Source: Chloranthus sessilifolius
Lineage: Eukaryota > Streptophyta > Magnoliopsida > Chloranthales > Chloranthaceae
Assembly (NCBI GenBank): GCA_021018995.1
Contig: CM037598.1
Location: 78,572,671-78,636,670 of the forward strand
DNA: 64,000 bases
Reading direction: 5' to 3'
The notes beneath the pieces were generated by a model. That model was not told where the DNA came from and made no database searches. It was given only the letters and a program-made list of their open reading frames with translations. Positions 4,831 to 60,561 of this stretch are shown one piece after another; positions within the stretch are counted from its first letter, which is position 1, and every line of letters starts with the position of its first letter. The position numbers and the translations under genes are program-made.

Positions 4831-5306
4831 ATTATACGTTGAGAGTCCAGCATATAATCTGAAATTATACGTTGGACGTCCGGCGTATAATCCGGGTGGG
4901 GTGGCCTCGGAGAAATCGGTCAAGTGACCGGCTAGTGACCGGATTGGCTTGGACACAAAGTCCGAATAGGACTTTCCTCAATTATACGCTATAAGTATAA
5001 TGTATAATCAAGAAATCTGATAGGTTTGAGGAAGATAAACCCAACCCAAGTTGTACATCGGGATTCCAGTGTATTATTCGGGGAAGTTCGGTTCTCGAGG
5101 AGAGTCCCAGTGCACTATCGGGGTAATTCCAGTGTATTATTCGGGGAAGTTCGGTTCTCGAGGAGAGTCCCAGTGCACTATCGGGGTAATTATACGCAGT
5201 GGTTTCTACGTATAACTAATTATACACCTCAAATTAGGCGTATAATTCGCAAGTTGATCGAGGTCGCATCAGGTCCAATTATACGCTGGACTTCCAACGT
5301 ATAATG
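4831..5306. repeat. Inverted-repeat motif array ATTATACG/CGTATAAT in the A 3' LTR
   Basis: ATTATACGY and its reverse complement RCGTATAAT occur as facing pairs separated by about 9-15 bp, often with an extended stem such as GCTGGA...TCCAGC. Pairs lie near 4831, 4864, 4981, 5187, 5218 and 5278. The array sits just upstream of the LTR TATA box on the minus strand and recurs at 6661-6930 and 59971-60482. Confidence 0.8.
5064..5189. repeat. Exact 63-bp tandem duplication in the A 3' LTR
   Basis: The unit TTCCAGTGTATTATTCGGGG and onward is present at 5064-5126 and 5127-5189 without visible differences. The partner LTR has one copy near 60290. It is recent compared with the LTR divergence, or an assembly artefact. 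Confidence 0.85.
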
Positions 5307-5417
5307 CTCAAAGATAAGGGTCCTTGGGATTCCGGAGAAAGGTTGGCTTTTCCAGAAATAGTAGGCAATGTCAACAATTGATCGAACACTTTTGCATACT
5401 TCGAGGGGGCGAAAATG

Positions 5418-5486
5418 GGGTGTCTACAGATTCCACTCTTCGGCGTATTCTTGTGGAGCAAAGATATGTCGCAGAAGTAGACACCC
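5418..5486. other. Long imperfect hairpin spanning the PPT and LTR edge of element A
   Basis: GGGTGTCTAC at 5418-5427, inside the LTR end, is perfectly complementary to GTAGACACCC at 5477-5486 in the internal region. Between them CTCTTCGGCG pairs imperfectly with the TGTCGCAGAAG segment. The minus-strand purine-rich tract (GAAGAGTGGAATC), the presumed PPT, lies within it. The same structure, better preserved, is at 51851-51919 in element B. Confidence 0.6.
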
Positions 5487-6235
5487 ATCACAAGTGTCAT
5501 TTCGTTTCTTAGAGAATTCACAAGTGTGAACCGAAATGAGCTGACATGAATTACTCAACTTTCTTATCTATCCGCACAAGCTAAGTAAAAGTGACGATTT
5601 AGAGGCCGATTGTAGCAATCGAGAGCTGTTTTCGCTGTCGTTGGTGCATGTTGTGACCAAACGGAGGGATTTTGTGCAATCGAAGTATAGGTGGTGCAAG
5701 CGAATGTCAAGGTAAAAGGGAAATGATATAAAAAGATGGCGTAGGCCTTGCAAGTCATATCAAACCAGGCGCGTCATTGCTCACACCAACGACGTACTAT
5801 GGGTTTCTTTTCTTAAACATTGTGATTCCTTAAGTTATATATACTCAATGTTCGATTTCCATCGGGGGGAGAACGGGTTGAGATAGATAGAGAGAGAAGG
5901 ATAGGTAGATATATAGATGAGAGATATGTATGTTAAGTTTTGAAATTTTGGGTTTAACTTAAATCAATTCGGTAAAAGCTTAAAAAACGTGACTCTTGAA
6001 ACGTCGCTGAACAAATTGACCTTTGTTTGAATTGCCAAAACACTTGATATGCCAAAGTACTCATTCTAACCTTCTCACGCACACTTACGAGTGCCGCTTA
6101 TGAGAAGACTACAGTAGTTCCGTGAATTAGGAGAGTCGGGTTTTGATACTCAATGTAAGCTTAATTATATATTTACGGAATATCGAGTTAAGAGGAATAA
6201 TACTTACCTGACTCGTCGCTAGCGAAGGTGTCTTC
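5487..6235. other. Element A region between 3' PPT and extra gene, non-coding
   Basis: No coding signal. It is collinear with element B at about 51920-52710 (shared AAGTGTGAACC, GAGCTGACATG, GCGTCATTGCTCACACCAAC). It is therefore an ancestral part of both elements, not host DNA. Confidence 0.5.
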
Positions 6236-6655
6236 CGTACAAGATAGCTGGCTTTTTATTTTACTTTATTTTAATTTTATCTTGTTTTATTGTTTTTATT
6301 TTGTTTTATTTTTATTTTATTTTATTTTATTTTTTTTATGTGATTTTATTTTATTTTATTTTCATTTTTTTTATGCGATATGGTTTGTTTGATTAAAGAT
6401 TTTTTTATTATTATTATCATTATCATTATTGTTATGTTTATTAATATTCGATAATTACTATTTATTAACATTCATATATGCCTAAGTATTTGTGAATACT
6501 AGGTTTATGTATGCTTTATTATTTTATATTATTATAATATTTTGCATCGTGTTTATGCTCTCTTTATATATATATATATCTCTTATTCTTATTCTTTTTT
6601 ATTTTATTATTATTATTATTATTTTATTTTTTTGCTCAAGCAATTTTACACTATT
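6236..6655. repeat. Low-complexity TTTTA/ATT-rich tract
   Basis: Runs of TTTTATTTTA, ATT and a short (TA)n. It occupies the place that in element B (52710-53560) is filled by a different degenerate repeat. Confidence 0.7.
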
Positions 6656-6660
6656 GTGTG

Positions 6661-6930
6661 TGTATAATCAATTATACATTGCACTACCAACGTATAATCG
6701 AAGTGTTAGTCGGGTACAGTCTGTACCTAATCGGGTGTCCGTTGGAATCATACGTTGCAGTCGTGGCGTATAACCCTGATTATACGTTGTAGCCACATTA
6801 TACCAGAATGTCGCTTATCCAAAGAGACGAAAAGACAATGATATGCTCGAATTCATGTGTATAATCAGGAATGTACGTTTGTTCTTTAGCGTATAAGCAG
6901 ATTATACACCTACTTTCCGGCGTAGAATCG
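6661..6930 (+). promoter_or_regulatory. A-family motif array upstream of the PMD gene
   Basis: At least five ATTATACR...YGTATAAT-type pairs (near 6670, 6748, 6776, 6860 and 6900), the same motif as in the A LTR array. They end about 10 bp before a TATA box for the plus-strand PMD gene. Sharing this motif between the minus-strand LTR promoter and the plus-strand gene promoter suggests one factor acts on both; that is inference. Confidence 0.75.
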
Positions 6931-6939
6931 GACAAGGTT

Positions 6940-6948
6940 CTATAAGTA
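6940..6948 (+). promoter_or_regulatory. TATA box of the PMD gene in element A
   Basis: CTATAAGTA followed by a CT-rich leader (TTCTTCATTTCTCTCATTCTC). It lies 173 bp before the likely ATG at 7113, a standard plant promoter arrangement. Confidence 0.6.
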
Positions 6949-7349
6949 CTTGAAATTTCTTCATTTCTCTCATTCTCTCTAACTTTCTCTACTTTCTGAG
7001 CTCCCTAACTTTCTGAGTGTTCTGATTTCTGTGTTCTCGCGATATCTTGCGACATGTCCGTCGAGCGCCGTTTCTTTCGTTTTTCTTCTTTTTCCGAGTT
7101 CGTTTTTATGGGATGGCTTCTGTGGGTGATAGTGATAGGGCTTCCACTTGCTTGAGGGCCGTTGAGGATATAGAGCGAGTACTAGGAGAGGCGGGTGCCA
7201 GTGAGGAGGTTGGCTTGATCGAAGGTGTTGCTATGGCTGAGGTGGCTTATCCCGGGGCTGCTCCTGGTGCTGGTGTGGGCGCGGTTCAAGAGGCTGCTGC
7301 TTGAGGCCGGGCTTCACATCCTATGCAGATTTCGTTGGAGGAGACTCTC

Positions 7350-7959
7350 GTGAGTGGAGAGGCAAGTGTTCTGAAGCAAGATTTCTTTTAAAGTTTTAGG
7401 CATTAATAGGTTATGACTTAGAATCTTCGGTTATGAAACTCCTTTAATTTACGTCGAATTTGCATTTAGTCGTAGTTTGTGCATACCGCATTCATACATC
7501 ATGCTTGTATATAGTTCAAGGTCATGTTTATTTATTGTCTCGTTTTATTTTTCTTATGTTTTGCATGTTGTATATTTATTTTCACATTCTCATACGCCAT
7601 GTTTATCGTTGCCATTATTTCATTATCATTTATCGTAGGTTTTCTTTTCATAATATTGTACGCATTGTTGTTGCTTGCCATGTCATTTTGTTCATAGTTG
7701 TCATGTTCATTTGTTTTGTATTTATTGTTGTCATATAGATTCTATTATTGTTTTATTATTTGTATGCATTGTTTGTGTTATCATTGTTATTATTACTATT
7801 ATTAGAGCTTATTTATCCTTAGTTTTTTCGATTGTTCGTCATTTATCATTGTATTTATTCTTTGTTATTACTTATTATTTATTATTATCTTTATTACGAT
7901 TATTATTATTACTACTATTATTATTGTGATTTTTATTATCATTCTCATTATCATTGTTA

Positions 7960-7990
<31 letters not shown>

Positions 7991-8155
7991 CTTTATTATT
8001 TCTATTATCATTATTATTATTATTCTCTTTATTATTATTGCCATTATTATTTGTAAAAAATCACTTTATCGTTTGTATTTATTTAATATTATTGTTTTAT
8101 CGCTATTATTATTATTATTTTCTTGTCCAAGTTTCGCTTATTATTATATTATTAA

Positions 8156-8201
<46 letters not shown>

Positions 8202-8268
8202 TATTTGTGAGTAGTTATTTTGATTTTAGGTTTGTCTTATGGTGTCTTTTTTTTTTACGTGTCTTTAG
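7350..8268. repeat. PMD intron 1 with ATT and TA microsatellites
   Basis: Long runs of (ATT)n from about 7600 to 8130 and (TA)n at about 8163-8200, flanked by a GTGAGT donor at 7350 and a TTTAG acceptor at 8266-8268. Several apparent Ile/Leu/Tyr-only ORFs are translations of this repeat and not genes. Confidence 0.7.
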
Positions 8269-10749
8269 GAGCCTCCCACTCTCTCCATTAGTTCGGCATG
8301 GGGGGAGTCCAGGAGGTGGTTCCTGATGTTGCCTTCGTTCCAGCAGGAGAGGCTCGCTAGGTGGGGTTTCGGTCTCATTCTGGACCTCGAGCCTTTCAGG
8401 CTCGATCGAGGATTGGTTGGGGCGTTGATTAAGTGATGGAGGGACGAGCAGCAGACGCTGCTATTCCTTATCGGGATGATGCACTCCCGACCCCAAAAGA
8501 TTGGGTGTGGATTACGGGGGTCTGATTCGAGGGCATGGCCGTGACGGGTCAGATGCTGCCCAATTATCAGGAGGCGTGTGGCACTTTCTTCGGGTGTCAG
8601 TATACTTTCATTGCCAGGTCAGGGACCAGTATGATCAGAACGACCTAGTTCGTCGATGAGTTCAGTGAGGGCTTCGTTCTGCAGAGGCGATTCAGGGAGA
8701 CACCGATAAATTATGAGGTGCGTCGTCAGTTAGTGGATGCTTGCCAACTAGTGATGGTGCCTGGCCTGACGACGGATAGGGAGATCAGAGCCTTTCTTAT
8801 GCACTTTTTTGGAGGCGTCCACTTCTCTGCCTCTACGAGGGGGGTGGTGAGCAGGATTTTCCTCACCCTCCTCGGGGATCTCGAGTAGATTGGCGCTTAC
8901 GCCTAGGGGGCGGCAGCACTTGCTCACTTATACGAGCAGGTGTTTAGGCGAGGGTGGGGAGCCAACACCATAGGCGATTTTATCCCATTTCTTCAGGTGA
9001 GTGGAGTCAAAGTTATTTGTTTATTTATTATTCTCATTTTTTTTTCTTAATAAAATATTTGTTGTTGTCTCGTTTTCCTCGTAGATATGGGCATATGATC
9101 ACTTTATGCTCTTGTGCCCACGGTTCCCAACTGGGACCGTTCACGTCTTCCCCCGCATGCGTGTGGAGGGCGGCTATTGGAGATGTCTGGAGATCGTCAG
9201 ACCTCCAAGTCTCCCCGAGGGCTGTTCGAGGACATGTACTCCGCATAAGTAGTGTATATTTTGGTTCTTTTGGTGTATTTTTGTCGTGCTTTGGGTTTAC
9301 TAATAGGTTTGATCTTTCAGGTCATTTGGAGGTCGTATGCGGACGACGAGGATGTGGATCAGGCTGTTATATAGTCTAGTCAGCAGTTCTTTCAAAGGGA
9401 CATATGAGTCCTCTCCTTTGAGAAAGTAATGAGGATTCATGTGTCCCGGGTCGTTCCTTAGCTAGGGCTTCATCAGGGAGTCCCCCCGGAGCTTCTCACG
9501 CATGTCGCGAAGAAGATGATCGGTCCCTCTGGCTGAATTTTTAGTGATACTATGAGAGCTCAACCCTAAGACTTTGAGGCTGGGGGGACTCTAATCACAG
9601 GTGCTCGTGATGATGCGGGCACTCAGGAGTACCAGATCTGGTATCGTCATCTTGGTGGGGGTCGTCTCTTTAGGCGGGCCTCCTTCCAGGGGAGTCGCCT
9701 GTTTGGTGTTGGAGGGCCTAAGTCTGTCTCCACTCTGAGGGAGAGACTGTCCGAGATGGAGAGGAGCTAGATTGGCCCGGGTGTCCGTGGAGCGTTAGAT
9801 GCTCTTTAGAGATCTCTGGGGGCAATGGGTGCTTCTGCCCGCCCAGATGAGACCCTCATAGCTTCGCTGGGCCACTCCATAGCAGATGCTAGGGAGGCGG
9901 AGCAGCTGACGGTGGCCCAGCTAGCAGCCGCTCGTCGAGATTTGGTGAGTGTTATGTTTATGGTTTCAATGTTTTGTTTTGATCGATTGGTTCTACTTTG
10001 TTTATTGATGTGTTTTCTTCCTGCTTTGCTTTATATAGGATGCCTTGAGCGAGAACAATCTCTTGTCCCAGCATATCAGCTTTCTCGAGTGCATGCAATC
10101 TAGTCATGATTAGATCTGGGCTAACCTAGTTTCTGAGATCGAGAGGCTAGTAAGTGTTTGATTTTGTTTAGTTCTCTTGTAAGTTTAATTTTTCTTTAGT
10201 GTCTCATGTTTTTTATTGGTCTCATGTTTGTAGAGAGCAGAGCTTGTTGCTGGCGCTCCCACCTTTGATCCTTCTTTCGTTGCATCCTCTAGTAGGGAGG
10301 ATCCGAAGGTAGCTCACCTTCGAGTTGAGTTAGAGCACTGGGTGAGTTCTTTGTTTGAGTTTATGTTATATGCTTTTGTATTATCTTGTCGTTTATATTT
10401 TTCTAAGATTTTCTTGGAATTCTTTTCAGCGGAAGGTCTCTGAAGATCGGCAAACTTCAGACACCACTACGGCCTCATTGCATTTGGATAGTTAGGTATG
10501 ACGAGTTTAGAGTGTTTTTGTTGTGTATTATTATGTGTTTTGTTTATCTGACCGTTTTTTTCTTTGTTTTGTTTGTTTGCAGGCTGTTCCTGACTCTACC
10601 CCTAAGGATACCCCTCAGGACCCCCTATGATATTTCCACCCTTCCTCTCCAGGTATAATTGCATAATATGCAGTTCTTTATTATTCTTATTTGGTTTTCC
10701 TATATCTGATGCATGTTTGTCTTATATTAATGACAGTCTATAACCGCGG

Positions 10750-12186
10750 TGATGCCTTGCTACTTATATGTATCTAATTAAGTCTTAACCTATTGCAAGC
10801 GCACAATGAAAATTGTAATGCTAGTATACGATCGTTCCTACGAGGAAGTGATGTATCTTTGTATGTATTAATTTAAAGATAACTTATATTTATCTTTAAG
10901 ATTCTAAACTACTTGAGAAATGTGAATAAAAGAATGGTTTTTTAAACTAAAGTGCAATAAAATAAATCCTAATATTCAAACTTCTAGATTCTGGTCGTCA
11001 ATCAGTTTTCTTCTGTTCTCAGATATTTATGAAATTAAAAATACCGTTACACTATATATCAAGTCTCTTAGCATCAGGTATCAATCAAAACTAGAATCTT
11101 ATCAATACAGAGTTAATCTAATTAACAATCAACAAAAAATTTGGGCGTCAATCAAACTCTAGAAAATTAAAGATGAAAAATAAAATACCGTTACACTAAT
11201 ATGCAAATCTTAACCTGATTCATCAATTCAAATCAAAAGTTAGAAAAAGCAGTAAATTGCAATAAAAATAAATTTAAATTAGAAAGCAAAGTAACTATAT
11301 CTTTCACTCCTCAGTCGCAGGCGTCAATTGCTTCTGAAAAACTACAGATATCTGCACTAATCTTCCAACTCTCAATCCCAGTCGTCAATTGTGATCGAGG
11401 AACCTTGGATATCTAAACTAAACTAAACTAAATTTTTTATTGGAAGAAAACCCAACCTCAGTTGTCAATTAATTTTGAGAATTCCTTCGATAAGATTTCC
11501 TATATACTGAGCCCTTTTATTTATAGATCATAAGGAGCCGGTTTACATTGATCTAATTCTAATAAAAGAAACTACTAAAACAAAAGTATTTTAATATAAT
11601 TCTAATTCCTAATTGTATATTCCTTGCTTTCAGTGGTTGATGCGCTTTGGACTTTTCTCCTTAATTTTAGCAATCGAGATCTTTAGGAGTCTTTCTTCAT
11701 CAATCTTATCAGATCCGTGATTCACCAAACTTCTAATTCAAGAGTTCTTCTAAATTGTGCATGACAGTGTAGATTGCTTCACGTGATCAGCAGCAATGAG
11801 AGCTTCATTCTATATAATCGTAAATTATGATTTCTTTTCTTTACAGCTTTTCTCTGGACGAATCTATATTACAAACAATTGTTTTCTTTCTGTATCGTAC
11901 TTCACTTTGAACGTCTTCTTTGAAGAATCATAAATTACGATTTCTTATTTCTTTGGCTTTGTTCAATCGTAAAGCACGATTTCTTGGCTTCCAGCACACA
12001 TCGAATCATTTTTACGTTCATTCGTCTTTATTACTACTTTTTGAGTTCATTTTGACGAAGATTAATACTTTGATTCTATTTTATTAATTTTCCTTAATAT
12101 TTGCACATCATTAATTTTTTAGTAGCAAACTGGAGTTTAACAGCACTAAGTTAAGGTGATAAATTGGTAAATTATGTGACTGATCA
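10750..12186 (-). mobile_element. Solo LTR (TGAT...ATCA), first copy
   Basis: Reverse-complement match over its whole length to 57713-59163. Ends are TGATGCC and CTGATCA in plus orientation. No gag or pol adjoins it. The flanks (CGCGG and GGTGC) do not form a target duplication, so the edge may be altered. It lies in the PMD gene near an exon boundary. Confidence 0.7.
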
Positions 12187-12759
12187 GGTGCCGCCTCCAC
12201 CTACTCCTTCGACGGATCCTCAGACAGTTGAGACGATCGAGTGTCTCCTTTGAGAGTGATCGGAGATGGTACGTTTTACTCCTTTCTATTCTTGTGCATT
12301 TATTTTATTATAAGTATAAGCCTTTCTTAGATCTAACATATATTTTTATGCAGGTTCGTCAGGTGGAGGAGATGCGCCTGAAGGTTGAGCTCGCTCGTGT
12401 CAGTCAGGAGGCTCGTTAGACTCCCCTAGATCATTTTGATTGGAGCTTTCAGGATGTAGTGGTTGATCTAGTTGTCCAGCAGAGGACTTGCTCGACGGAG
12501 TTGGAGAGTGCCCGAGCAACAGTGAAGGCGAAGGTGCAGGTTACAATCGATCTCTTACAGCATGAGCTGGCGAGGAGGACTGGGGAGATCCAGAGTGCAG
12601 TCACTCGCTTTGCTGGGTGGGAGTCGGAGGGTACTAGCTCCCTGGCGGGTCCACGCCGTACGTCTCATGAGCGTATGAAGGACTATGTTCGTGATGAGGC
12701 GGCTCTTCGTGAGTTGTTCTCTTCTAGCCACCCGTGTTCGCGGTCTAGGTGATCGGTTA

Positions 12760-13200
12760 GTCAGGTGAGAGAGGGAGGTTCTGTTGTCAGGCCTTCCTCT
12801 TCATTAAGGCCTCCGGTTGTCCCCCGGCCTTCAGTTAAAACTTCGGTGGGTAGGACGCCAGACCTGCTAGTCGAGGAGACTAGAGATAGTAGTGACCGAC
12901 CGACCTAGAGGCAATGGACTGAGTAGAGCATTTTGTACTTTTTCTTTCCTCTTTTCATTGTATATTCAGGGGGTATGCCTCCGGTGACACTTGTATAAGA
13001 TTTTTCATATATATATCAAGATGACCCTTTTCTTCAGATGTTGTACCTTTTTTAATCCTTTTGTTTCCTTTATCATTTGCTTTCTTGGATGTCGCCAACT
13101 GTTCTTAGGACTTGGTTGCTTCCGAGCTGGCCTAATAACAGTTGAAGATTACTTTTACCTACACAAGAAAACAAAATTATCAGTAATTTTTATTTCTCCC
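12760..13200. other. 3' end of the PMD gene, with conserved GGTATGCCTCCGG hairpin
   Basis: A Ser/Pro-rich coding tail fades out. At 12968-12982 AGGGGGTATGCCTCCGGTGA forms a small stem-loop that is preserved in element B at about 54490-54504 (GGAGGTATGCCTCCGGTGAC), where the gene body is gone. Position after the last exon suggests a 3'-end processing or termination signal; that is unproven. Confidence 0.4.
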
Positions 13201-14640
13201 CTTGGTAATTGTTAAGGGGGTGGTATCTCAAACCGAGGTTTGCTAACAAAGGAGATAAATATTATTATTCTTTTTTTTTTCTTCTATTTCTATTACATGG
13301 TGGGACTTTTAAAAGAAAGAAACAAAGCAATAAGGAAATAAGAAAATAAAATGAAACAATAAAATAAACTAAAAAAAATATCCCAGTGTAGGAGCTTAAT
13401 TGCATCGGCAACGTGGCGTCTTTGGTGACCTTCTTGGATGTTGTTTAATTATCTTGTTGTTCTGCATCCAACTATCCAACTACTGAACAAAAGAGGGTTC
13501 TTGATGCTATTTCGGAGTGTTGCAGGGGAGATTTCTCTGTCTTGGAACTTGTTTGCCTCAGCGAAGCAATGAATGAGTCTCTCATAAAGAGTATCTTACC
13601 ACACTTTTCAATTGGACTGGTAGCTTGGAACTTCTCCATTTGATAGTAATTCGAGATGTCGGGGGTGAATTTGCAACTTTTGCAACTCTTTTACAAAATA
13701 AAAAAATGCCCCAATTTCAAGTCGCAATGGTACTTTCCTGGGCTTTACAGATATCCAGAGTTATTCTGGGGCTATGAATATATTTGGGGAGTTAGTAACA
13801 AAGAAAATTCCCTTGTAGTGCTGCCACATCAGTGAGAATTTAGCTATTTCAGCTGTATATCGGTTTTGCCTTCTTGATAGTAATCATCATGTGCCATAAT
13901 TTTGATAGGGATGGGAAGAGCGATAGGTAGTAGTTGATTGCATCATTCATCATTCACGAGTTTTTGGTTTTATCATTAAAAAGAACTTGAAAAATTATTT
14001 GACTCATTGTCCGAAAAAAATAAATGGGTGAAAAGGGGTGAGGCTTAGTGATGTGGGGATAGCTTCCTATTTGATAACTTTTAAGAAAATAGTTAACAAT
14101 CTTTTTCTCGAGTGCAGTGTAGTGTCATAGTTGAGCTCTCCATCATGTGTTGGCACCATCAAAATCTCAAATTATACAATTAGCAGGAGTTTTATCCTCC
14201 CACCATCGTATGACGATATCTAATAGTGTGAAGATGTCAGGGATGCCCTCACAGTTTTGCTTATACTTCCCTGGATTCAATGACTCATTCATTCATTGCA
14301 TGCTCTCGTTTGGTTATGCTTCTTCTCTTTTTTTTAAGCATGTATGTCTATTTTTTTTAAACGACTTGCTAACACAAGAATTATGAGTTTTGATGGAACC
14401 TCGCATTTTCATTTTTTATGCTCTATCATCGACTCCAATGGTAGGACAGGGGGTGAGAATCCAATATTTTCTATGTTTTAAAAGAGGTTTCATGATCCGC
14501 TAGTCATTTTGATCAAATTGCCCGAATAAGAAGGTGGTCATGAGTTAGAAGATTTTAAAAGATAATTTCAAAGATAATGGCGTAGGACCGAATAACGATT
14601 TATGGTAACTACGAGGATGATAAACATAAGTACACATATC
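13201..14640. other. Element A spacer between PMD gene and pol
   Basis: No convincing coding sequence. From about 13670 it is collinear with 54740-55740 of element B (shared ATGCCCCA, GAAGATGTCAGGGATGCCCT, TGATGGAACCT), so it belongs to the element and lies between the convergent ends of the PMD gene (+) and pol (-). Confidence 0.5.
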
Positions 14641-14649
14641 TTGTTACAG

Positions 14650-16562: not shown

Positions 16563-16567
16563 AAATT
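16563..16567. repeat. Target-site duplication of C1, left (AAATT)
   Basis: Identical to 29563-29567 and directly adjoining both LTR termini. Confidence 0.95.
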
Positions 16568-19212: not shown

Positions 19213-19228
19213 TCCTCCCCACCTTGGG
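19213..19228 (-). other. C1 polypurine tract
   Basis: Minus strand CCCAAGGTGGGGAGGA abuts the 3' LTR start (TGTAATAGCC). This is the plus-strand DNA primer site of LTR elements. The C2 equivalent is at 34676-34691. Confidence 0.85.
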
Positions 19229-19400
19229 AATTTTCGTCCTCGAAAATAACCCAAGGTTTGTCTCTTTGGGTCTCTTTCTCTAATTCCCCCCCCCCTTCTC
19301 ACACTCCAGGTGAGGTGGTCCAGGAGACCCAGAGGCATTTAAGCATTCACACATTCACACAGACAAGTATGGAAGTAAAATTTAACAAAAATGCTTAATG

Positions 19401-41977: not shown

Positions 41978-41979
41978 AC

Positions 41980-51173: not shown

Positions 51174-51181
51174 TTTTTATA
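51174..51181 (-). promoter_or_regulatory. TATA box of the element B LTR
   Basis: TATAAAAA on the minus strand, about 10 bp downstream of the motif array. The same element occurs at about 56941-56948 in the other LTR. Confidence 0.65.
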
Positions 51182-51190
51182 GGTATCGAG

Positions 51191-51650
51191 GTAATTACGC
51201 GCATGTGGCCAAGTGCGTAATTGATCAATTACGTGCATAGGGCCATGCATGGGATTGAATTTCGCGCAGGTTTCTGTGCATGCAATTTGGTCTGAGTCGG
51301 TCATGGACTCGAGAATGACCGATTGACTGGATCAGCTGGGGAGTCCTAGTTCCATTATGCCTGGAGCTAATTTCGCGCGTGGAATAATGCATGAAATTCA
51401 ATTACACGCAAGGGAATGTGTGTGTAATCGAGGAGTTCGAGCGGTCTGGGGAATTAGAGTTCTAGTCCATGTCTGGACTAATTCCGTGCATTTTGGGATG
51501 CATGTAATCGAATGCCTCGCAACCATAGAGGTGCGAGATTTGAACTTTAGGCGGTGCACAGAAGTGTATGTCGAGTCAAAGCTAGACTAATTGTGCACAT
51601 GTAGCTCTACATGCGATTTAATTTCTCGTGTGGGTTCACGTGCGCAATTC
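51191..51650. repeat. AATTACGCGC-type inverted-repeat array in the B 3' LTR
   Basis: Facing pairs such as AATTACGCGCATG...GTGCGTAATT (51191), AATTACGTGCATAG...CATGCATGGGATTGAATT (51228), AATTTCGCGCGTGG...TGCATGAAATT (51368), and onward to 51650. Inner spacers are about 8-12 bp. A CG-rich core flanked by AATT distinguishes it from the A and C motifs. Confidence 0.75.
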
Positions 51651-51850
51651 GGGGGTCTTCCGGGACTTATTGGGTTCGAGCTTCTATGCTGATGTTTCAG
51701 CCCGTATCTCAACCATATACTATGTGCTTAGTGTATAGTCCCCATATTCAGGGTTCTAATACTTTCAGAGAGGTTAGTCCATTCTCGAGAGTTATGGGCA
51801 TGGTCAAAGGTTGCCCGAACGGGTTTGTATATTCTGAGAGGGAGAAAATG

Positions 51851-51919
51851 GGGTGTCTACAGATGCCCCTCTTCGGCGCATTCTTGTGGTACAAGGATGC
51901 GCCAAAGAAGTAGACACCC
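51851..51919. other. Long hairpin across the PPT and LTR edge of element B
   Basis: GGGTGTCTAC (51851-51860) pairs with GTAGACACCC (51910-51919). Inside, the CTTCGGCGCATTCTTGT arm pairs with the ACAAGGATGCGCCAAAGAAG arm with one mismatch and one bulge. The presumed PPT (minus GAAGAGGGGCATC) lies inside. Element A has a decayed version at 5418-5486. Confidence 0.75.
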
Positions 51920-52709
51920 CTCTTTTAGGGTGCCTTATATTTTTTTTGAGAGATCAAAAGTGTGAACCGTGGAGCTGACATGCAATACTTGGCTTTCTTC
52001 TCTATCAGTACAAGCTGAAAGGAGCATTCGGGAGCTCAGTGGTAGCTGTTTAGAGGTATATCCTCATTCGCGGGTGCAAGTGGTATCCTATCGCATATCA
52101 CGACCTGTTGCAAGTGGCAGTCAAATGGGGAAAATTGACGAAATTGGGGTACCGGGGGATATCGTACGAATATCCAGAGATAAGGTCAAGTGACCAAGTA
52201 ATACAATGTACTATGATGGCGAAGGCTTTTACAAGTCATGTCAGTTGAGCGCGTCATTGCTCACACCAACGATGCATCAGGAGTCCCTTTCCAGCAGACA
52301 TTTGTGATTTCTCAAAGTTGAGTATGCTCGACGTTCGACTTCCCAAGGGAGAGAACAGATTGAGGTGATGAGAGATAGAAAGTCTGATGGATAAGGGGTT
52401 TTGATAATTCAGGTTTTTAACTTTAGATCAATTTAGTGGTAAAACTTCTGAAAATGTGGCTTCCAAGACGTCACTGAGCAGATCCATCGGTACAAGATTT
52501 GTGGACCCGACCTTTGTTTGGTTTTCAATAAGACGCTCAGTATGCCGGATACACCTTCTAACCTTCTCGGGATACTAATGATTGTCTCTTATGGAAGGAC
52601 TACAGTGATTCACATGTAAGGAGAGTCAGGTTTTGAAAACATTTGACTTAATATTAGTTAACTATATTTACAACGAATATCGAGTGGAGAGGATGCTACT
52701 TACCTAGCT
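51920..52709. other. Element B spacer, collinear with element A 5487-6235
   Basis: No coding sequence. Shared words with A (AAGTGTGAACCG, GAGCTGACATG, GCGTCATTGCTCACACCAAC) show common origin. Confidence 0.5.
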
Positions 52710-53560
52710 TGTTACCTGTTGTTTTGGGCTTGTTGCATGATGGGACTTCGAGGAGTTTCTTCTCCTTTTATGTTCGGGTGCGTCTTTCGGTCGCGGCAGG
52801 GAGTGTTGATCGTTGTGCAATGGGATATTTGGGGGGTGTTGTTGTGATGGGACACTCGGGGGGTTCAGATTTGCTGCTTGCTTCTTCGTGATGGGACATT
52901 GGTGGACCTCCCCTCTTGGTTGGACGCTATGGTGAATCGCAGTGGGTCTTGATGTTTATGTGATCGTGTCGTGACAGGCCTCGCTTTTAGTGGTGACGAC
53001 ATGGTGGGGCTTTTTATGTCATGATGGGGCAACGAGTTTAGTTTGGGATGGTGGTGGTGATCATGTTTGGATTTTGTTGCCATGGGACGTGTTATCATGT
53101 GTGCTTATGGGTGTGCAATGGGGCATTTTTTTTTGCCTCGATATGTGGGGTCACGCGATGGGACAAGGGGAATGGTTCGTTTTCTTATTGCGGTGGGATG
53201 AGTTGCCCGGTGTGTCTGTGAGTGTGCGATGGGCCTTTTATCATTTTTGCTTTTCAGGGGTTCTAGTGGGCTGATTTTGTTATTTTGCTGGTTTGTTTAT
53301 CATAGTGGAGCGAGTGGCGAGTATTTGTGGTAGGATATCAAGGAGTGTTTTGATTTTGGGTTGTGTTCGTCGCGATGGTACTATAGGGGATGATTTCTCC
53401 TTCTGGTATAATCCCGGCGTCATGGTGGGATAAAGCTAACCGTGTGATGGATTATTCTTGGGTTGTGATGGGTCAAAGTGATTTGCATGTTATTGTTTTT
53501 CTTTGTGGTGGGGAAAGGACATTTTAATTTGGTTTAAGGTTTTTGTTGAGGGCATAGGTT
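52710..53560. repeat. Degenerate minisatellite around RATGGGAC
   Basis: (G/C)(T/A)GATGGGAC-like words recur roughly every 35-80 bp (about 52737, 52819, 52847, 52889, 53023, 53081, 53157 and 53228) in a GT-rich setting. Element A has an unrelated TTTTA tract in this position. Confidence 0.5.
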
Positions 53561-53609
53561 TGTTTTGTTCAAGGTGTATGCTTGGTTTGAGGTGTGTATT
53601 ATAGCTGGG

Positions 53610-53970
53610 GAATTGCGTGCATGGATGTGTGCGTATAATCTAATTGAGCGCTCGGTATGATGCGCGTGATTAGAGGGTCAGTGGGTTGATTACGTGTGAA
53701 GATCTCGGCGTGTAATCCAATTACGCGCGGGTTGTCAGGTGCTCGATCGAAGCGTCATCGGGTCACAGGGCAGAGTGCTCAGAAGACTTTTCAAATTTTG
53801 CACGAAGGTGAACGCACGGGAATTTAATTGCACGCGGGTCCCCTGCGTGTGTTTGGTTCGTCGTATCTTTTGGGCTGGTGTAGCCCGACTCATGCGCTCT
53901 ATGTGACACGCTTAATTTGAAATGTGCACCGGTTTGCCGGCGCTGGTTTGCGCGTCGTATTTTAGGCGCT
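53610..53970 (+). promoter_or_regulatory. B-family motif array upstream of the extra-gene remnant
   Basis: AATTGCGTGC, ATGCGCGTGATTA, GATTACGTGTG...GCGTGTAATCC, AATTACGCGCGGG, AATTGCACGCGGG and TGCGCGTCG-type words, the same CG-core motif as in the B LTR, ending shortly before a TATA box at 53986. Confidence 0.65.
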
Positions 53971-53985
53971 TAATTCGGCGAACAC

Positions 53986-53994
53986 CTATATATG
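53986..53994 (+). promoter_or_regulatory. TATA box of the element B extra-gene remnant
   Basis: CTATATATG followed by a CT-rich leader (TTTCTTCATTTTTCTTCATT), parallel to 6940-6948 in element A. Confidence 0.55.
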
Positions 53995-54059
53995 CTCGGA
54001 CTTTCTTCATTTTTCTTCATTCGTTCTTGACTTTGTGCGAGCCCGAGTTTAGAGTGTCT

Positions 54060-54500
54060 CGATTTCAGTGTTTTGGCAATATTTTTCGATCCGACCATCT
54101 GATTGTGATGTCGTTTCTTTCGATCTTCGTAATTTTAAGCGTTTTTCGCCCTAGAGTGATTCCAAATGGCGGTGTGATTGGAGATGTCGCTGTGGCTTGG
54201 GGTAGTTTATTGTTGGAGTTGTCACCGTGGTCGAGGAGGGTGGACTCCCGACCTTGAAGAGTCAAAGCTTTAAGTGGACCAATAGAGGAGGCGAAGATGG
54301 CGGGAGGGAAGTCATATAAATGGATGGAAAGGGTGTTACCCAACCATTCCTCCCGCTTTTCTGTTGCTTCCGATTGAACCTCCCGCGCATTGTGTGCTTC
54401 TGTATTCGTTTTGGGTTGTAGGTTAGGTTCTAGGTTTTCGTTTTGGATTGTAGGTTAGGTTCTAGGTTTTCATTTTGGGTTATATGTTCAGGAGGTATGC
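54060..54500 (+). pseudogene. Remnant of the PMD gene in element B (first exon and 3' end only)
   Basis: After the promoter, about 200 bp align loosely with the leader and first exon of the A PMD gene. The text then jumps to the gene's 3' end, where GGAGGTATGCCTCCGGTGAC (about 54489) matches A at 12968. The PMD domain itself is gone. A 35-bp TTTTGGGTTGTAGGTTAGGTTCTAGG-like phrase is repeated about three times (54408-54480). Confidence 0.5.
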
Positions 54501-55745
54501 CTCCGGTGACACCTGCAAATTTTTTTATTAGAAATAAAGCGGTGTTTTTATTTATTATATTCTTTTCATTTATTTATGTGTGTTATTATTTATTTTTTTA
54601 GGTTACGTTGGAGGGCGAATGGGTCGTGTTAGAGTATGGTGTTTATTTTTGGTGTATGTTGTGCGTTTTCTTATTGTCTTGTTTTGGATGTTTGATGTGT
54701 TTATTTTTGGGGTCCTATGGTGGGAAAGTAAGAAATAAACTGAAAATATTAAAAAAATGCCCCAGTTTGGGGTGTCGGTCTCGTGACTTGATTATCGCTA
54801 CGAAGGTGCTAGTGCTTAAAAAAAGCCCCAGTGTCAAGTGACAGCGGGACTTTTATCCGCCTCACAGATATCCTAGAGTACATTGGTAATGCTCTCATAT
54901 TGGGAAGTAGTTTGATTATTTCGGCCATGCGTCGGGCTTGATTCTACAGGCACTAATCGATTATCATGTATCGTGGCTTTTAACAAGATCGAGGTGGATG
55001 GTAGCTAAAGAGTGATTGCATCACTTGCCATTCGAGAGCTTTCGACTTTATTCTCAAAGAGATTTTGAAAATTATTTGATTCATTGTCCGAAAAGAAAAA
55101 ATTAAGGGTGAAAGTAGGTAAGGTTTATTGATCTGGGAGTAGTTTCTTATTCAACAACTTCCTGAAATAGTAGTTAACTACTTTCTTCTTGGGTGGATAA
55201 TGCGGTGCCATAATTGAATTCTTCGTCATGGTCCATCACCATCAAAGTTTTGAATTTTTTGGTTAGCAGGAGTTTTGTCCTCCTCCCACCACCGTACGAC
55301 GACATCTAGAAGTGTGAAGATGTCAGGGATGCCCTTGCGATTTGCTTATGCTTTCCTAATAAAAATACTGAGAATGCCCTCACAATTTTCTTATGCTTTC
55401 CTAGGCTCATTGACTTATTCATTCGTTGTATGCTCTCTCTTGGTTGTGTATGTTTTCTATATTTTTTAAACAACCTGCTAATGCAAGAATTATGAGATTT
55501 GATGGAACCTTATATTCTCATTTTTTTTTGTTCTATCACCAACTCCAATGACGGAAAAAGGTGTATGAGAATCCAGAGTTTTCTATATTTCAAAAGAGAG
55601 TTTTATGATCCACTAGTCCTTTCGATCAATTTGCCTGAATAAGGAGGTAGTCAATGAGTCAGATGATTCCTAAAATGGCTTAAAAAATAATGACTTACAA
55701 TTGGCGAATGATTCGTGATGGCTACGAGGATAATAAATATATAAG
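54501..55745. other. Element B spacer between extra gene and pol remnant
   Basis: Collinear with 13670-14640 of element A. Non-coding. One internal duplication of the ATGCCCT...TTTGCTTATGCTTTCCTA phrase at 55330-55405. Confidence 0.5.
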
Positions 55746-55749
55746 TATG

Positions 55750-56000
55750 CGTGTTTAGGCCACGAGACATGATGATGATCGAGTTATGAATATCACTGCA
55801 AGGTTTAGGAAATCCTTCCCTATAGTTGTTTCTTGAGCATATTGCCAGAATAATATAAGTACTTCCCTTGTGGGTTTTGATTTCCTCCTGGTGAGGCGGT
55901 CGTGTAGGCATTGTTCCTTAGCACCAGTTCTTCGACTTCGAGTTCTCGGTCGTGTATGAGTTCGAAGGGTGGCATAAAAGAGTATTTTTGTTTTCAAATA
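55750..56000 (-). pseudogene. Element B integrase C-terminal trace
   Basis: On the minus strand a MPPFELIHDRELEVEELVLR-like stretch resembles the plant integrase tail region (MPPFEL...YG...). Short and frame-shifted; the rest of pol is deleted. Confidence 0.4.
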
Positions 56001-56549
56001 TTTATATTTTTAGGCATTTATACTTTTGATTTTTTGTGACTTTTCCTATTTTTAATTTTTTTTTTTTTGTTATTATTACTTTTGTGTTGAGGTACAACAT
56101 CAGTTCCTTAAGCGGAGATTGACTCAAAAGGTCGGACAGAGTGATAGTTGGATAATCTGCTTCGAGGTCCTCGTTCTGATTGATCTGGGACGAGGGAGAC
56201 GTCAGGCATGCGTTGTGTTTTGGATGATGTGAGATTTGTCAAAATAGGTGTGTGTCTTTTAACTTCTTCTTTTGATAAGTCTTTTGTGGCCGGAGGCTCT
56301 TTGTCAGGAGGGACCTTCTTTAACTTTTTGATAGGGTGAGGCATCTCGTAGAGTTGGAGCTTACAGTTATTAGGGTATTTTTTGGGGTGATTTACGGGTT
56401 GTTGGAAAGTCGTTTTGGGGTGAAGTTGGAGGGGTGCCTGTTGCGAGGGAAGGTAGTGTGGTAAAGGTAATGATAGGATGAGGCAAAAGTAAACTAAGAG
56501 GAGGAGACGTGAAGGCGTTGGCCAAGGTGGACCCGTTCCCGAGTACCCG
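56001..56549 (-). other. Element B segment with basic ORF, function unknown
   Basis: An ORF on the minus strand (starting about 56602, inside the truncated LTR) contains LYEMPHPIKKLKKVPPDKEP and a Pro/Thr/Lys-rich end. I do not recognise it. It may be what is left of a Tat gag leader or simply chance. The boundary with the truncated LTR at about 56550 marks a deletion junction. Confidence 0.3.
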
Positions 56550-57624
56550 CACAAGGAGGATCGGCTCAGTTCCTGGGTAGCCCCGTAAGCTCCCTTGGGC
56601 AAATTGGGTGGCTAAGGTTGAGAAAACTATAGAGGGTTAGGGACTTAATGGGCTCTAGGCTGAGAAATTTGGTCAAGGGTTTCCTAAGGGATCTAAGGCT
56701 AAGGGCGCTTAATCTTCCTGTACTCCTTCGAGAGTCAGGGCTAGCTAGCCAGTGTCGCTAGCCTGACTACCCAGGGATCCTAGAGAAGAGTCTGCAGTTC
56801 TAGAAGCCTAGAAGAGTAGCTCAACCCCTTTCTTTGGGAGCCCTAGAGAGAACCTCAAAATATCTAAGAAGAGCTAGGCTTAGAAGAGCGGAGAGAAAAT
56901 TATTGATTTGATGTGTGAAAGTTGTGCGGTAGGGGGATCTTTTTATAAGTATCGGGGTAATTACGTGCATGTGGACAAGTGCGTAATTGGCGAATTACGT
57001 GCATAGGGCCATGCGTGGGATGGAATTCCACACAGGTTTCTATGTATGCAATTCGGTTTGAGTCGGTCACGGACTCGAGAACGACCGATTGACTAGCTCA
57101 ACTGGGGAGTCCTAGTTCCATTATGCGGAGTTAATTTCGCGCATAGAATAATGCGTGAAATTCAATTACGCGCAAGAGATTATGGGCGTAATCAAGGAGT
57201 TTGAGAGGTCTGGGGAATTAGAGTTCTAGTCCATGTTTGGACTAATTTCGCACGTTTTGGGATGCGTGTAATCGAATGCCACGCAGCTAGAGGTGCAAGA
57301 TTTGAAACTTCAGGCGGTGCATGGAAGTGTATGCCGAGTCTAAGCCAGACTAATTACGCGCATGTAGCTTTGCATGCGATTTAATTGCGTGTGTGGGTTC
57401 ACGCGCGCAATTTGGGGGCTTCCGGGTCTTATTGGGTTCGAGCTTCTATGTTGATGTTTCAGCCCGTATCTCAACCATATACTATGTGCTTAGTATATAG
57501 TCCCCATATTCAGGGTTCTGATACTTTTGGAGAGGGTTAGTCCCTTCCAGAGAGTTATGGGCATGGTCAAAGGTTGACCAAATGGGTTAGAATATTCAAA
57601 GAGGGCGAAAATGGGGTGTCTACA
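56550..57624 (-). repeat. Element B 5' LTR, truncated
   Basis: Collinear with 50790-51861 from AAGGAGGATCGG to GTGTCTACA. The first about 360 bp (plus coordinates), that is the U5 side and the PBS, are lost. It contains a TATA (56941-56948) and the motif array (56959-57413). Confidence 0.8.
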
Positions 57625-57707
57625 ACTAAGATGCCTATAATGCATGTAGTGTGTGTAAAAAAGTGGTAAAAGAAAGCAAAAACAAAAACCCAAATTATTT
57701 AAAAGGG

Positions 57708-57712
57708 GCTAC
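57708..57712. repeat. Target-site duplication (GCTAC), left
   Basis: Identical to 59164-59168. Confidence 0.92.
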
Positions 57713-59163
57713 TGATCAGTCACATAATTTACCAATTTATCACCCTTAACTTAGTGCTGCTAAACCTCAGTTTGCTACTAATAAGTTAATGATGTGAAGA
57801 TATTAAGAAAAATCAGTAAAATAGAGCCAACGTGTTAATCTTCGTCAAAATGAACTCATAGAGCAATAAGAATAATGATTGAGCATAAAAGACAATTCGA
57901 CGTGTGTTGAAAGCCAAGAATTCATATTTTACGATTGAACGAAGCCAAAGAAATAAGAAATTGTAATTTTTGATTCTTTAGAAAAGACGTTCAAAGTGAA
58001 GTGCGATACAGAAGAGAAAGTGGTCGATCATAATGCAGAATCATCCACAGAGAGAAAAGCTATAAAGAGAAAGAAATCGTAATCTACGATTGTATAGAAT
58101 GAAGATTCTCATTGCTGCTGATCATGTGAAAATCTACACTGTCATGCACCAAAATAGAAGAACTCTTGAATTAGAAGTTTGATAAATCACGGATCTGAGA
58201 CGATTGATGAAGGAAGACTCCTAAAGATCTCGGTTGCTGAAATTAAGGAGAAAATTTCAAAAGCGCATCAACCACTGAACGCAAGGAAGATAAAATTAGG
58301 AATTAGGGTTATATTAGGATACTTTTGTTTTAGTTGTTTCTTTTCTTAGAATAATATTTAATGTTAATGTAAACCAACCCCTTATGATCTATAAATAAAT
58401 TTCTCAGCACATAGGAAAACTTATCGAAGGAATTCTCAAAATCAATTAGCAACTGTTGGGTTTTCTTCCGATCAAATATTTAGTTTTGAGTACTTTAGAT
58501 ATCCAAGGTTCCTCGATCACAATTGACGACTGAGATTGAGAGCTGAAAGATTAGTGTAGATATCCGTAGTTTCTCAGAAGCAATTGACGCTTGCGGCTGA
58601 GGGGTAAAAGATATATTTTTACTTTGCTTTCTAGTTTAGATTTATTTTTATTGTAATTTACTGCTTTGTAAACATCTCAAAGTTTTGATTTGAATTGATG
58701 ATTCAGGTTGAGATTTACAGATTAGTGTAATGGTATTTTATTTTCCATCTTCAATTTTCTAGAGTTTGATTGACACCCAAATTTCTGGTTAGTTGTTGAT
58801 TAGATTAAATCTGTATTGATAGGATTCTAGTTTTGATTGATGCCCAATGCTAGGAGACTTGATATATAGTGTAACGGTATTTTTAATTTTATAAATATTT
58901 GAGAACAGAAGGAAACTGATCGACGAGCGGAATCCAGAAGTTTGAAGAATAGGATTTATTTTCTTGTAAATTAGTTTAAAAAAACCTTTCTTTTATTCAT
59001 ATTTCTCAAGTAGTTTAAAATCTTAAAGATAAATATAAGTTTTCTTTAGAAATAACAAGATAAATCACTTTCACGTGGGAACGATCCTATACTAGCATTA
59101 CAATTTCCATTGTGTGCTTGCAATAGGTTAGGACTTAATTAAAACAATATAAAGAGCATATCA
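57713..59163 (+). mobile_element. Solo LTR (TGAT...ATCA), second copy, 1451 bp
   Basis: Termini TGATCAGT and GCATATCA, perfect GCTAC duplication, no adjoining coding domains. Inverse orientation to the copy at 10750-12186, about 47 kb away. Both sit inside element A. Confidence 0.88.
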
Positions 59164-59181
59164 GCTACCGTAGCAAAATGA

Positions 59182-59199
59182 GTTTCATCGTGATCGCCA
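59182..59199 (-). other. Possible primer-binding site of element A
   Basis: Minus strand TGGCGATCACGATGAAAC begins three bases after the 5' LTR end. The TGGCGA start fits the class of PBS seen in Ogre-type elements (TGGCGACTC...), but the remainder is mutated, so the tRNA cannot be assigned safely. Confidence 0.45.
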
Positions 59200-59202
59200 G
59201 TC

Positions 59203-60561
59203 TATTGGTACACATTTTTTGAGGACCCTTTCAGATTTAGGAAAAATGATTCCAATATGGTCACAAGGGGACTCTGTTTGCAAAGGAAAGGGTGAAAATA
59301 TAATTATAATAAAAAAGGGTATTTAAATGCACCTGCAGAAAATCATTAGTTGCAGTTTGAATTTAAATGGTATACCTAATGTCGCGATAGCTATCTACAA
59401 ATTTATCGACGTTGTAGAACGTCATTGATCGCGAGGATAGGGTGAGGGATTAGGGTTGGACTCCTATGCTAAACACCGACATGCCGGCTTTAGCAGCTAA
59501 GGTTGCCTAGGATTTTAACTAATTTCGATTTTTCTATCCTAATTGATCTAACTAAAAGGGGGATGTTGGCCCGTTATGCCCAGGAGGATCGGCCCCATTC
59601 CCGGGTATCCTGGCTCCCTTGGGCAAATCAGGTTTAAAGGCTATGATTGGTTTTGAAAATATGATCAGTGGTGTGGATCTAATTGGATCTAAGTTAAGAA
59701 TTTCGGCAGGGGTCTCCTAAGGGACAGATCTAAGGCTAGCTTTTCTTCCCTTGAACTACTCGAGAGTCGAAGCAGATGGGCGAGCCACACCATGCTTGAC
59801 TGCTCAACGAGACTTGTAGAAGAGAGTCACAGTTCTAAGAGCCAGATACTTAGAGTGCAACTCTGCTCTATTTCGAAATCTCAAAGCTAACCTCGAGTTT
59901 TCCAGATAGAATACAAAAACTTGTGTGTAGAGAATGGGAGGGGAAGGGCCCTATTTATAGTACACGGTAGATTATACGCTGAGAGTCCAGCATATAATCC
60001 AGAATTATACGTTGGACGTCTGACGTATAATCTGAGTTATACGCTGGGAGTCCAGCGTATAATGAATTATATGCTATGGTTATAGCGTATAATCTGGGTG
60101 GCCTTAGAGAAATCAGTCAAGTGACCGATTGGTGACCGGATTGTCCTAGACACAGAGTCAGCGTAGAACTTTACTCAATTATACATTGTAGGTACAATAT
60201 ATAATCAGAAAGTCGGATAGGTTTGAGGAAGAGAAACCCAACCTAAGTTGGACTGATTATACATTGGGATTCCTGCGTATAATGAATTATACGCTGGGAT
60301 TCCAGCATATAATCCGGGGAAGTTCAGTTCTCGAGAAGGAGAGTCCCAGTGCACTAATGGGGCAATTATACGTGGTGATTTTTACGTATAACTAATTATA
60401 CGCCTCAAATTAGGTGTATAATCCATGAGTTGACCGGGGCTGCGTCGGGTCCAATTATACGACAAGAGTCTAGCGTATAATTCCCAAAGATAAGGGTCCT
60501 TGGGATTTCGGGGAAAGGTTGGATTTTCTAGAAATCGTGGGGCGAAAACATGGTGTCTACA
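59203..60561 (-). repeat. Element A 5' LTR (1359 bp)
   Basis: TATTGGTAC (one transition from TGTTGGTAC) to GTGTCTACA. Same order of TATA (59952-59959) and motif array (59971-60482) as the partner, without the 160-bp and 63-bp duplications. Confidence 0.85.
59971..60482. repeat. ATTATACG/CGTATAAT inverted-repeat array in the A 5' LTR
   Basis: About ten facing pairs; several have long stems (GCTGGGA...TCCAGC near 60027 and 60293). More pairs remain here than in the 3' LTR, where some were replaced or lost. Confidence 0.85.

What the first reader, a model, noticed from the sequence alone, without database searches (positions are those of the whole stretch)
4831..60482. Three retroelement families each reuse a private palindromic motif in the LTR promoter and in the promoter of an extra gene
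In families A, B and C a family-specific short inverted-repeat motif is arrayed next to the promoter of the extra, non-gag-pol ORF (A 6661-6930; B 53610-53970; C 21231-21867 and 38099-38657) and again inside every LTR (A 4831-5306 and 59971-60482; B 51191-51650 and 56959-57413; C 18049-18640, 28398-28970, 33673-34090, 43518-43900). In A and B the LTR arrays also sit directly upstream of the U3 TATA box. I did not see the arrays in gag, pol or spacer DNA. The motifs differ completely between families, and the extra ORF is antisense in A and B but sense in C, so the arrangement appears to have evolved repeatedly. A self-recognition circuit (repressor, activator or anti-silencer encoded by the extra ORF) would explain it. 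VANC proteins of Arabidopsis VANDAL elements, which bind short motifs dense in their own non-coding DNA and counteract methylation, are a precedent. The mechanism here is inference.
Basis: partly seen in the sequence, partly recalled or inferred. Interest (0 to 1): 0.93.

Follow-up and report, generated by a model that had tools for sequence, protein, structure and literature searches.

The report
Retrotransposons with self-matching promoter motif arrays
In this stretch of plant DNA, three kinds of jumping element each carry their own short mirror-image DNA motif, packed beside the promoter of an extra gene and again inside the element's terminal repeats, which suggests that each element recognises and regulates its own copies.

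Summary
Four nested plant LTR elements (A, B, C1, C2) carry family-specific palindrome arrays in every LTR and again at one internal promoter. Models trained on LTR copies alone find those internal arrays and almost nothing else; a de novo 8-mer scan agrees (weakly for B). In 8 of 8 promoter copies (A and B LTRs; A, B, C1, C2 internal promoters) a TATA-like box starts 7-11 bp after the array, against about 1% of positions. C1-C2 identity is 0.86-0.94 in motifs, 0.57-0.63 in spacers.

Corrections: A and B motifs are variants of one 30-bp dyad, so the arrangement arose at most twice. B has lost most of the extra gene. C LTR arrays do not abut a TATA box. A's extra gene encodes a Plant Mobile Domain protein; C's resembles Transposase_32 and shows coding constraint.

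Most likely the extra protein binds its own motif at its own promoter and in the LTR: a family-specific self-regulatory circuit, activating or anti-silencing. Arrays and constraint are shown; binder and direction are inferred. Genome-wide copies could not be reached. New variant of a known kind.

The parts
3894..60561 (-). Element A, interrupted by B, C1, C2 and two copies of a 1.4-kb repeat; flanks cagct/tagct (4 of 5)
   Evidence: RT piece 30329-30658 and RNase H piece 29792-30025 on minus strand
4830..5306 (-). A 3'LTR dyad array, ending 9 bp before TATA-like CTATAAATA
59970..60482 (-). A 5'LTR dyad array, ending 9 bp before TATA-like CTATAAATA
6670..6929 (+). A extra-gene promoter dyad array (5 dyads above every shuffle score, a sixth weaker), TATA-like box 10 bp further
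6940..13086 (+). A extra gene, antisense to gag-pol: leader aligns with B; decayed Plant Mobile Domain pieces near 8400-9170; interrupted by a 1.4-kb repeat at 10758-12187. The 3' limit is a guess
   Evidence: PF10536 E 1.5e-15 on a reading with X at four stops
50784..57624 (-). Element B, non-autonomous; flanks actat/actaa (4 of 5); no gag-pol domain found, most of the extra gene missing
51193..51649 (-). B 3'LTR dyad array (9 dyads), ending 10 bp before TATA-like box
56959..57412 (-). B 5'LTR dyad array (8 dyads), ending 11 bp before TATA-like box
53611..53975 (+). B extra-gene promoter dyad array (5 dyads above every shuffle score, a weak sixth nearest the TATA-like box, 11 bp before it)
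16568..29562 (-). Element C1, chromodomain element; flanks aaatt/aaatt
18049..18640 (-). C1 3'LTR array of TCGATTAATCGA
28398..28970 (-). C1 5'LTR array of TCGATTAATCGA (21 sites)
21233..21866 (-). C1 extra-gene promoter array (23 sites), TATA-like CTATAAATA 7 bp further
20094..20998 (-). C1 extra gene, sense: start MPPKTRLSS at 20998 in one frame, Transposase_32-like region 20094-20768 in another (frameshift or splice between)
   Evidence: PF20167 E 3.7e-8, 33.9 bits, below cutoff 45; codon-position bias
32147..44487 (-). Element C2, relative of C1 with RT, RNase H and integrase pieces; flanks ctaga/ctaga
33673..34090 (-). C2 3'LTR array
43518..43900 (-). C2 5'LTR array (15 sites)
38098..38657 (-). 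C2 extra-gene promoter array (16 sites), TATA-like box 9 bp further
37140..37856 (-). C2 extra gene, broken; aligns with C1's
   Evidence: tblastn 53% and 81% identity in two pieces; PF20167 only E 0.088

Best explanation
Each family carries a private operator-like palindrome. Arrays of it end about one helical turn upstream of the TATA box of an extra gene, and recur in the LTRs (in A and B again about one turn upstream of the LTR's TATA box). The extra gene's product, a Plant Mobile Domain protein in A (and presumably in B's ancestor) and a Transposase_32-like protein in C, most likely binds these dyads and controls both promoters: a family-specific self-regulatory circuit, more likely activating or anti-silencing than repressing. 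Shown here: arrays, positions, conservation of cores over spacers, coding constraint on the C protein, family-matched motif at both sites. Inferred: that the encoded protein is the binder, the direction of regulation, and any effect on silencing.
For: LTR-only models find the internal promoters and a de novo scan agrees. TATA-like box 7-11 bp past the array in 8 of 8 promoter copies of A LTR, B LTR and the four extra-gene promoters, background 1.0-1.3%. C1-C2 motif identity 0.86-0.94 against spacers 0.57-0.63, while the two LTRs of one insertion show no such gap between motif and rest of LTR (0.033 against 0.036; 0.048 against 0.042): constraint while mobile, not afterwards. Half-sites shared between LTR and promoter dyads (0.73 in A, 0.64 in B) far more than dyad centres (0.38, 0.29), so motif kept without recent copying. 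C extra gene evolves as a protein: C1-C2 differences 28, 18, 65 at codon positions 1, 2, 3, like the integrase end (21, 10, 50). A's extra gene has a Plant Mobile Domain. C sites keep helical phase in 4 of 4 arrays tested (p 0.0005 to 0.036). B keeps 9 and 8 LTR dyads though it lacks the gene, which fits activation in trans better than repression (inference).
Against: No binding, expression or methylation data. No copies outside the window, so arrays in gene-less lineages were not tested. A/B arrays show no helical phase beyond the 30-34 bp pairs (0 of 4). C LTRs have no TATA box within 30 bp of the array (0 of 4), and the array may be transcribed. C2's LTR variant TCGACTAATCGA (10 of 30 sites) is absent in exact form from its promoter array (0 of 13). 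CpG decay is lower in C motifs but not in A/B arrays. Neither Plant Mobile Domain nor Transposase_32 is a proven sequence-specific DNA binder; the C match is below the curated cutoff. The 8 promoter copies amount to about two independent cases, and array edges were chosen after seeing the arrays.
Confidence: 0.5

Rival explanations
1. Host factor sites: the palindromes bind a host transcription factor and both element promoters recruit the same one; the extra protein plays no part.
For: TATA-proximal palindromes of this size are ordinary for host factors; sharing between two promoters of one element needs no encoded binder. Same facts.
Against: Motif differs between A and B although leader and promoter are homologous, at both sites in step; densities of up to 23 sites per array are unusual for host promoters (general knowledge).
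Confidence: 0.2
2. By-product of replication: tandem repeats arise by abnormal strand transfer in the hypervariable 3' region and spread to the LTR by template switching; the likeness of the two arrays is homogenisation without function.
For: Tandem repeats downstream of gag-pol are common in Ogre-type elements and were proposed to arise this way (PMC7004042, passages); tandem units of 40-83 bp overlie the C arrays.
Against: Cores conserved and spacers not, between LTR and promoter and between C1 and C2; arrays end at a fixed distance from TATA boxes; absent from the rest of the 3' region.
Confidence: 0.15
3. Hairpins: the dyads act as RNA or extruded DNA stems, for instance in the 3' part of the genomic RNA, not as protein sites.
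For: Inner arms co-vary in A LTR dyads (positions 10-14: 0.62 against 0.40, p 0.0004 in the 5'LTR; 0.63 against 0.47, p 0.047 in the 3'LTR, many column sets tested). Of 7 chosen dyads folded as RNA, both A LTR dyads, one A promoter dyad and one B LTR dyad beat all 200 shuffles. In B, mismatches are wobble pairs more often if the plus strand is the RNA (49 against 18).
Against: No co-variation in A's promoter dyads (p 0.52) or in any B set. Of the three other promoter dyads folded, two do no better than many shuffles (36 and 167 of 200 as good) and one is modest (7 of 200). Wobble pairs give no consistent sense-strand excess (A 5'LTR 8 against 8, A 3'LTR 7 against 4, B the reverse). The 12-bp C palindrome leaves no loop.
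Confidence: 0.1

Closest known systems
VANC proteins of Arabidopsis VANDAL (Mutator-like) elements (PMC5735166, passages; PMC10398659, abstract and outline)
   Same: Short family-specific motif at high density in the element's own non-coding DNA, evolving through tandem repeats, with an extra element-encoded protein; motif variants track subfamilies.
   Different: DNA transposons; VANC motif is a 9-base, same-orientation motif, here palindromes; binding and demethylation are proven there, not here; here arrays are tied to two TATA boxes.
Antisense extra genes of Retand/Grande-type elements (PMC11963269, parts 1-3 of 5 read; PMC7264820, parts 1-2 of 3 read)
   Same: Gene between pol and 3'LTR, antisense, with its own promoter, suggested regulatory and DNA-binding role; family-specific tandem repeats in the same region.
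   Different: Those papers, in the parts read, report no motif shared with the LTR; domain there is Transposase_28, here Plant Mobile Domain.
Ogre-lineage elements with Plant Mobile Domain (57% of Ogre elements, PMC6317226, passage; PMD-A clades only in Gypsy elements, PMC5418596, passages)
   Same: Ty3/gypsy element with a Plant Mobile Domain extra gene: element A.
   Different: No promoter or LTR motif described in the passages seen; lineage of A not placed by phylogeny here.
Extra ORFs of Tekay and Athila elements in sunflower (PMC11728184, passages)
   Same: Transposase_32 in a sense 3' extra ORF (there in Athila); extra ORF in Tekay elements.
   Different: There the Tekay extra ORF is 5' of gag-pol and matched no known domain; C is a chromodomain element with the 3' sense Transposase_32-like kind.
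Tandem repeats in the 3' region of Ogre elements as satellite seeds (PMC7004042, passages)
   Same: Family-specific tandem repeats downstream of gag-pol.
   Different: Here arrays are palindromic, recur inside LTRs and end next to TATA boxes.

Membership tests
VANC-type anti-silencing system | Private short motif dense in the element's own non-coding DNA | tested here: met
VANC-type anti-silencing system | Element-encoded protein that binds the motif | not testable with these tools
   needs DAP-seq or EMSA
VANC-type anti-silencing system | Loss of methylation centred on motifs | tested here: inconclusive
   CpG decay as a proxy: lower in C motifs (11 of 64 against 44 of 134), not in A/B arrays (35 of 66 against 16 of 41)
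VANC-type anti-silencing system | Protein homologous to VANC | not tested
   Pfam gave Plant Mobile Domain (A) and Transposase_32-like (C); no direct comparison with VANC was made
Ogre lineage (element A) | Plant Mobile Domain extra gene (57% of Ogre, PMC6317226) | tested here: met
   PF10536 E 1.5e-15, 57.7 bits, cutoff 34.9, X at four stops
Ogre lineage (element A) | RT phylogeny with Ogre | not tested
   only a 110-residue RT piece identified; primer site resemblance to tRNA-Arg is recalled
Retand lineage (element A) | Antisense Transposase_28 (PF04195) gene | tested here: not met
   no PF04195 in 6 open pieces of the A extra-gene region nor in the PMD reading; the whole region was not scanned
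Tekay chromovirus (C1, C2) | Chromodomain at the integrase end | tested here: met
   C1 22010-22462: PF00385 E 6.9e-5, 23.1 bits, just below cutoff 25.1, with PF24626 E 7.4e-25
Tekay chromovirus (C1, C2) | RT phylogeny with Tekay | not tested
   Tekay rather than another chromovirus clade is recalled, not tested
Tekay chromovirus (C1, C2) | Extra ORF 5' of gag-pol, as in the Tekay group of PMC11728184 | tested here: not met
   the extra gene found lies between pol and the 3'LTR in both copies; the 5' side was not examined for ORFs

The most novel reading that the evidence does not exclude
Plant LTR retrotransposons of two lineages have independently built VANC-like self-recognition systems: an extra protein, of a different family in each lineage, binds private dyads that end one turn upstream of TATA at its own promoter and controls LTR transcription, so each family can switch on its own copies while others stay silent. 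Derivatives such as B that lost the gene exploit it in trans.
Probability: 0.3. Interest if true: 0.92.

Novelty: new variant of a known kind. Interest (0 to 1): 0.74.

Why it matters
What the extra genes of plant LTR retrotransposons do (Plant Mobile Domain, Transposase_28, Transposase_32) is an open question. A private DNA motif shared by the extra-gene promoter and the LTR gives these proteins a concrete candidate target and predicts family-specific regulation in trans. If right, self-recognition circuits known from Mutator-like DNA transposons have also arisen in LTR elements, and some family-specific repeats near 3'LTRs would be operator arrays.

Tried and rejected
Rejected: chance; a young simple tandem duplication (spacers diverged while cores hold); a hairpin need common to all arrays; complete independence of the A and B motifs. 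Own-family preference of all 12 listed promoter dyads is biased, because each was first found with its own model; I rely, where every model was run over the whole window. Rows dropped before counts: the A dyad at 5049, and the weak dyads 6778 and 53946. Column information is biased for core columns, since sites were chosen by core match.

Led nowhere: protein search with the C extra ORF (45 candidates, none at E 0.001); viral contigs (searches found nothing; one search gave 4 pattern matches, none confirmed); solved structures (2 hits, E 0.7 and 0.97); genome contigs (three prokaryote contigs with a motif pair, not plant). Rfam and tRNA scans were empty. The structure job was unfinished at all 14 collections. 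Paper searches on which 'I saw no report' rests: open-access library only.
Full report
Setting. The window is plant-type DNA with nested Ty3/gypsy elements, all with gag-pol or LTR promoter on the minus strand. C1 (16568-29562) and C2 (32147-44487) have LTRs 93% and 94% alike and exact 5-bp flanking repeats (aaatt, ctaga). B (50784-57624; LTRs 89%) and A (3894-60561; LTRs 88% and 77% in two stretches) have flanks matching at 4 of 5. A carries RT and RNase H pieces and weak integrase matches; C1 a chromodomain (just below cutoff) and RNase H; C2 RT, RNase H and integrase pieces. By coordinates C1, C2 and B lie inside A.

The arrays. C's motif is the perfect palindrome TCGATTAATCGA; the four C arrays tested hold 21, 15, 23 and 16 sites, and 49 of 71 neighbouring sites are 17-24 bp apart. 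A and B have 30-bp inverted repeats, AATTATACGCTGG..CCAGCGTATAATT and AATTACGCGCATG..CATGCGCGTAATT; 15 of 27 neighbouring dyads in four arrays are 30-34 bp apart. Models built only from LTR copies were run over the whole window and 10 dinucleotide shuffles. Above every shuffle score, outside LTRs, A's model finds 5 sites in the A extra-gene promoter and 1 in B's; B's finds 5 in its own promoter; C's finds 20 and 12 in its two promoters and 1 elsewhere. A comparison with no motif chosen by me (903 overlapping non-LTR tiles) ranks the extra-gene promoter first for A and C1, first but with only 2 hits for B, and for C2 a tile in C1's promoter.

Promoters. A TATA-like box starts 9, 9 (A LTRs), 10, 11 (B LTRs), 10 (A extra gene), 11 (B, counted from a weak dyad), 7 (C1) and 9 (C2) bp past the array edge: 8 of 8, where 1.0-1.3% of window positions have one 5-15 bp ahead. 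LTR copies of one element, A with B, and C1 with C2 are related, so this is about two independent cases; edges were picked after seeing the arrays. In the four C LTRs none lies within 30 bp. There a GATAAAAGG (C1) or AATAAAAGG (C2) lies about 210 bp into the LTR, and the first motif core at 581-597, so the C LTR array may be transcribed.

Extra genes. A's gene, antisense, reads as a Plant Mobile Domain protein (PF10536, E 1.5e-15) through four stops. C's, sense, matches Transposase_32 in C1 (E 3.7e-8, below the curated cutoff) and barely in C2 (E 0.088). C1 and C2 differ in that region at 28, 18 and 65 sites of codon positions 1, 2 and 3, much as in the integrase end (21, 10, 50) and RT/RNase H (13, 8, 79); the first 214 bases show little bias (11, 9, 14). 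So the main domain evolved as a protein. B aligns with A beside the 3'LTR (A 5429-6216, 63%), at the extra-gene promoter and leader (A 6940-7100, 64%), at a short stretch near A 12945-13086 that may be the gene's tail, and beyond (A 13815-14670, 69%); A 7101-12944 has no aligned counterpart. B is a deletion derivative that kept the promoter.

Selection. Between C1 and C2, motif columns (called from C1 alone) are 0.86-0.94 identical and spacers 0.57-0.63; alignments are partly anchored by the motifs. Between the two LTRs of one insertion, mismatch is 0.033 in motifs and 0.036 in the rest of the LTR (C1; array spacers 0.114, inflated by indels) and 0.048 and 0.042 (C2). So the motif was held while the lineage moved, not afterwards. 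In A and B, LTR and promoter dyads agree at half-sites (0.73, 0.64) far more than at centres (0.38, 0.29): shared motif, no recent copying. Between A and B, LTR dyads agree at 0.58 in half-sites and 0.23 in centres, and the models cross-hit, so I read them as variants of one ancestral dyad.

Against the reading. C2's LTR variant TCGACTAATCGA (10 of 30 sites) is not found exactly in its promoter array (0 of 13). Helical phasing is significant in 4 of 4 C arrays and 0 of 4 A/B arrays, and tandem duplication could also cause it. Motif CpGs decayed less than other LTR CpGs in C (11 of 64 against 44 of 134, p 0.027), not in A/B arrays (35 of 66 against 16 of 41, p 0.17). Inner arms co-vary in A's LTR dyads only, and some dyads fold well as RNA (4 of 7 tested beat every shuffle), which leaves room for hairpins in A.

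Interpretation. The simplest account of a private, conserved dyad at exactly two promoters of an element, one of them that of a conserved extra gene, is that the extra protein is its reader. I lean to activation or anti-silencing because B, without the gene, still keeps 9 and 8 LTR dyads. That lean is inference; a host factor is the main rival. Repeated origin reduces to at most two, since A and B share promoter, leader and motif plan.

Prior work. In the parts I read, a review and a survey describe antisense extra genes with their own promoter, a suggested DNA-binding role, and tandem repeats near the 3'LTR (PMC7264820, parts 1-2 of 3; PMC11963269, parts 1-3 of 5, and a term search). Passages of other papers give PMD in 57% of Ogre elements (PMC6317226), PMD-A clades in Gypsy elements only (PMC5418596), Transposase_32 in an Athila extra ORF (PMC11728184) and VANC motifs (PMC5735166). 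In ten searches of the open-access library I saw no report of a motif array shared by LTR and extra-gene promoter; listings show titles and abstract starts only, and two subscription papers on extra genes were not held.

Noticed in passing
10758-12187 and 57712-59158: The same 1.4-kb repeat in opposite orientations, 86% alike; one copy interrupts A's extra gene, the other lies inside A near its 5'LTR.
   Followed up: no
3354-3769 and 63601-63998: A direct repeat, 78% alike, on both sides of A: A may sit in an older LTR element whose other parts run out of the window.
   Followed up: no
19213-21880 and 34676-38670: A chromodomain (Tekay-like) element with a sense 3' extra gene of Transposase_32 type, which PMC11728184 reports for Athila, not Tekay.
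   Followed up: partly
L001:7536, L002:796, L003:4594: Three prokaryote contigs each hold two exact TCGATTAATCGA 20-21 bp apart, the same spacing as in C; possibly operators of unrelated regulators.
   Followed up: no
1613-2210, 48900-49024, 5063-5191: Other tandem repeats: 128-bp units, 40-bp units (98%), and a perfect 63-bp duplication inside A's 3'LTR array.
   Followed up: no
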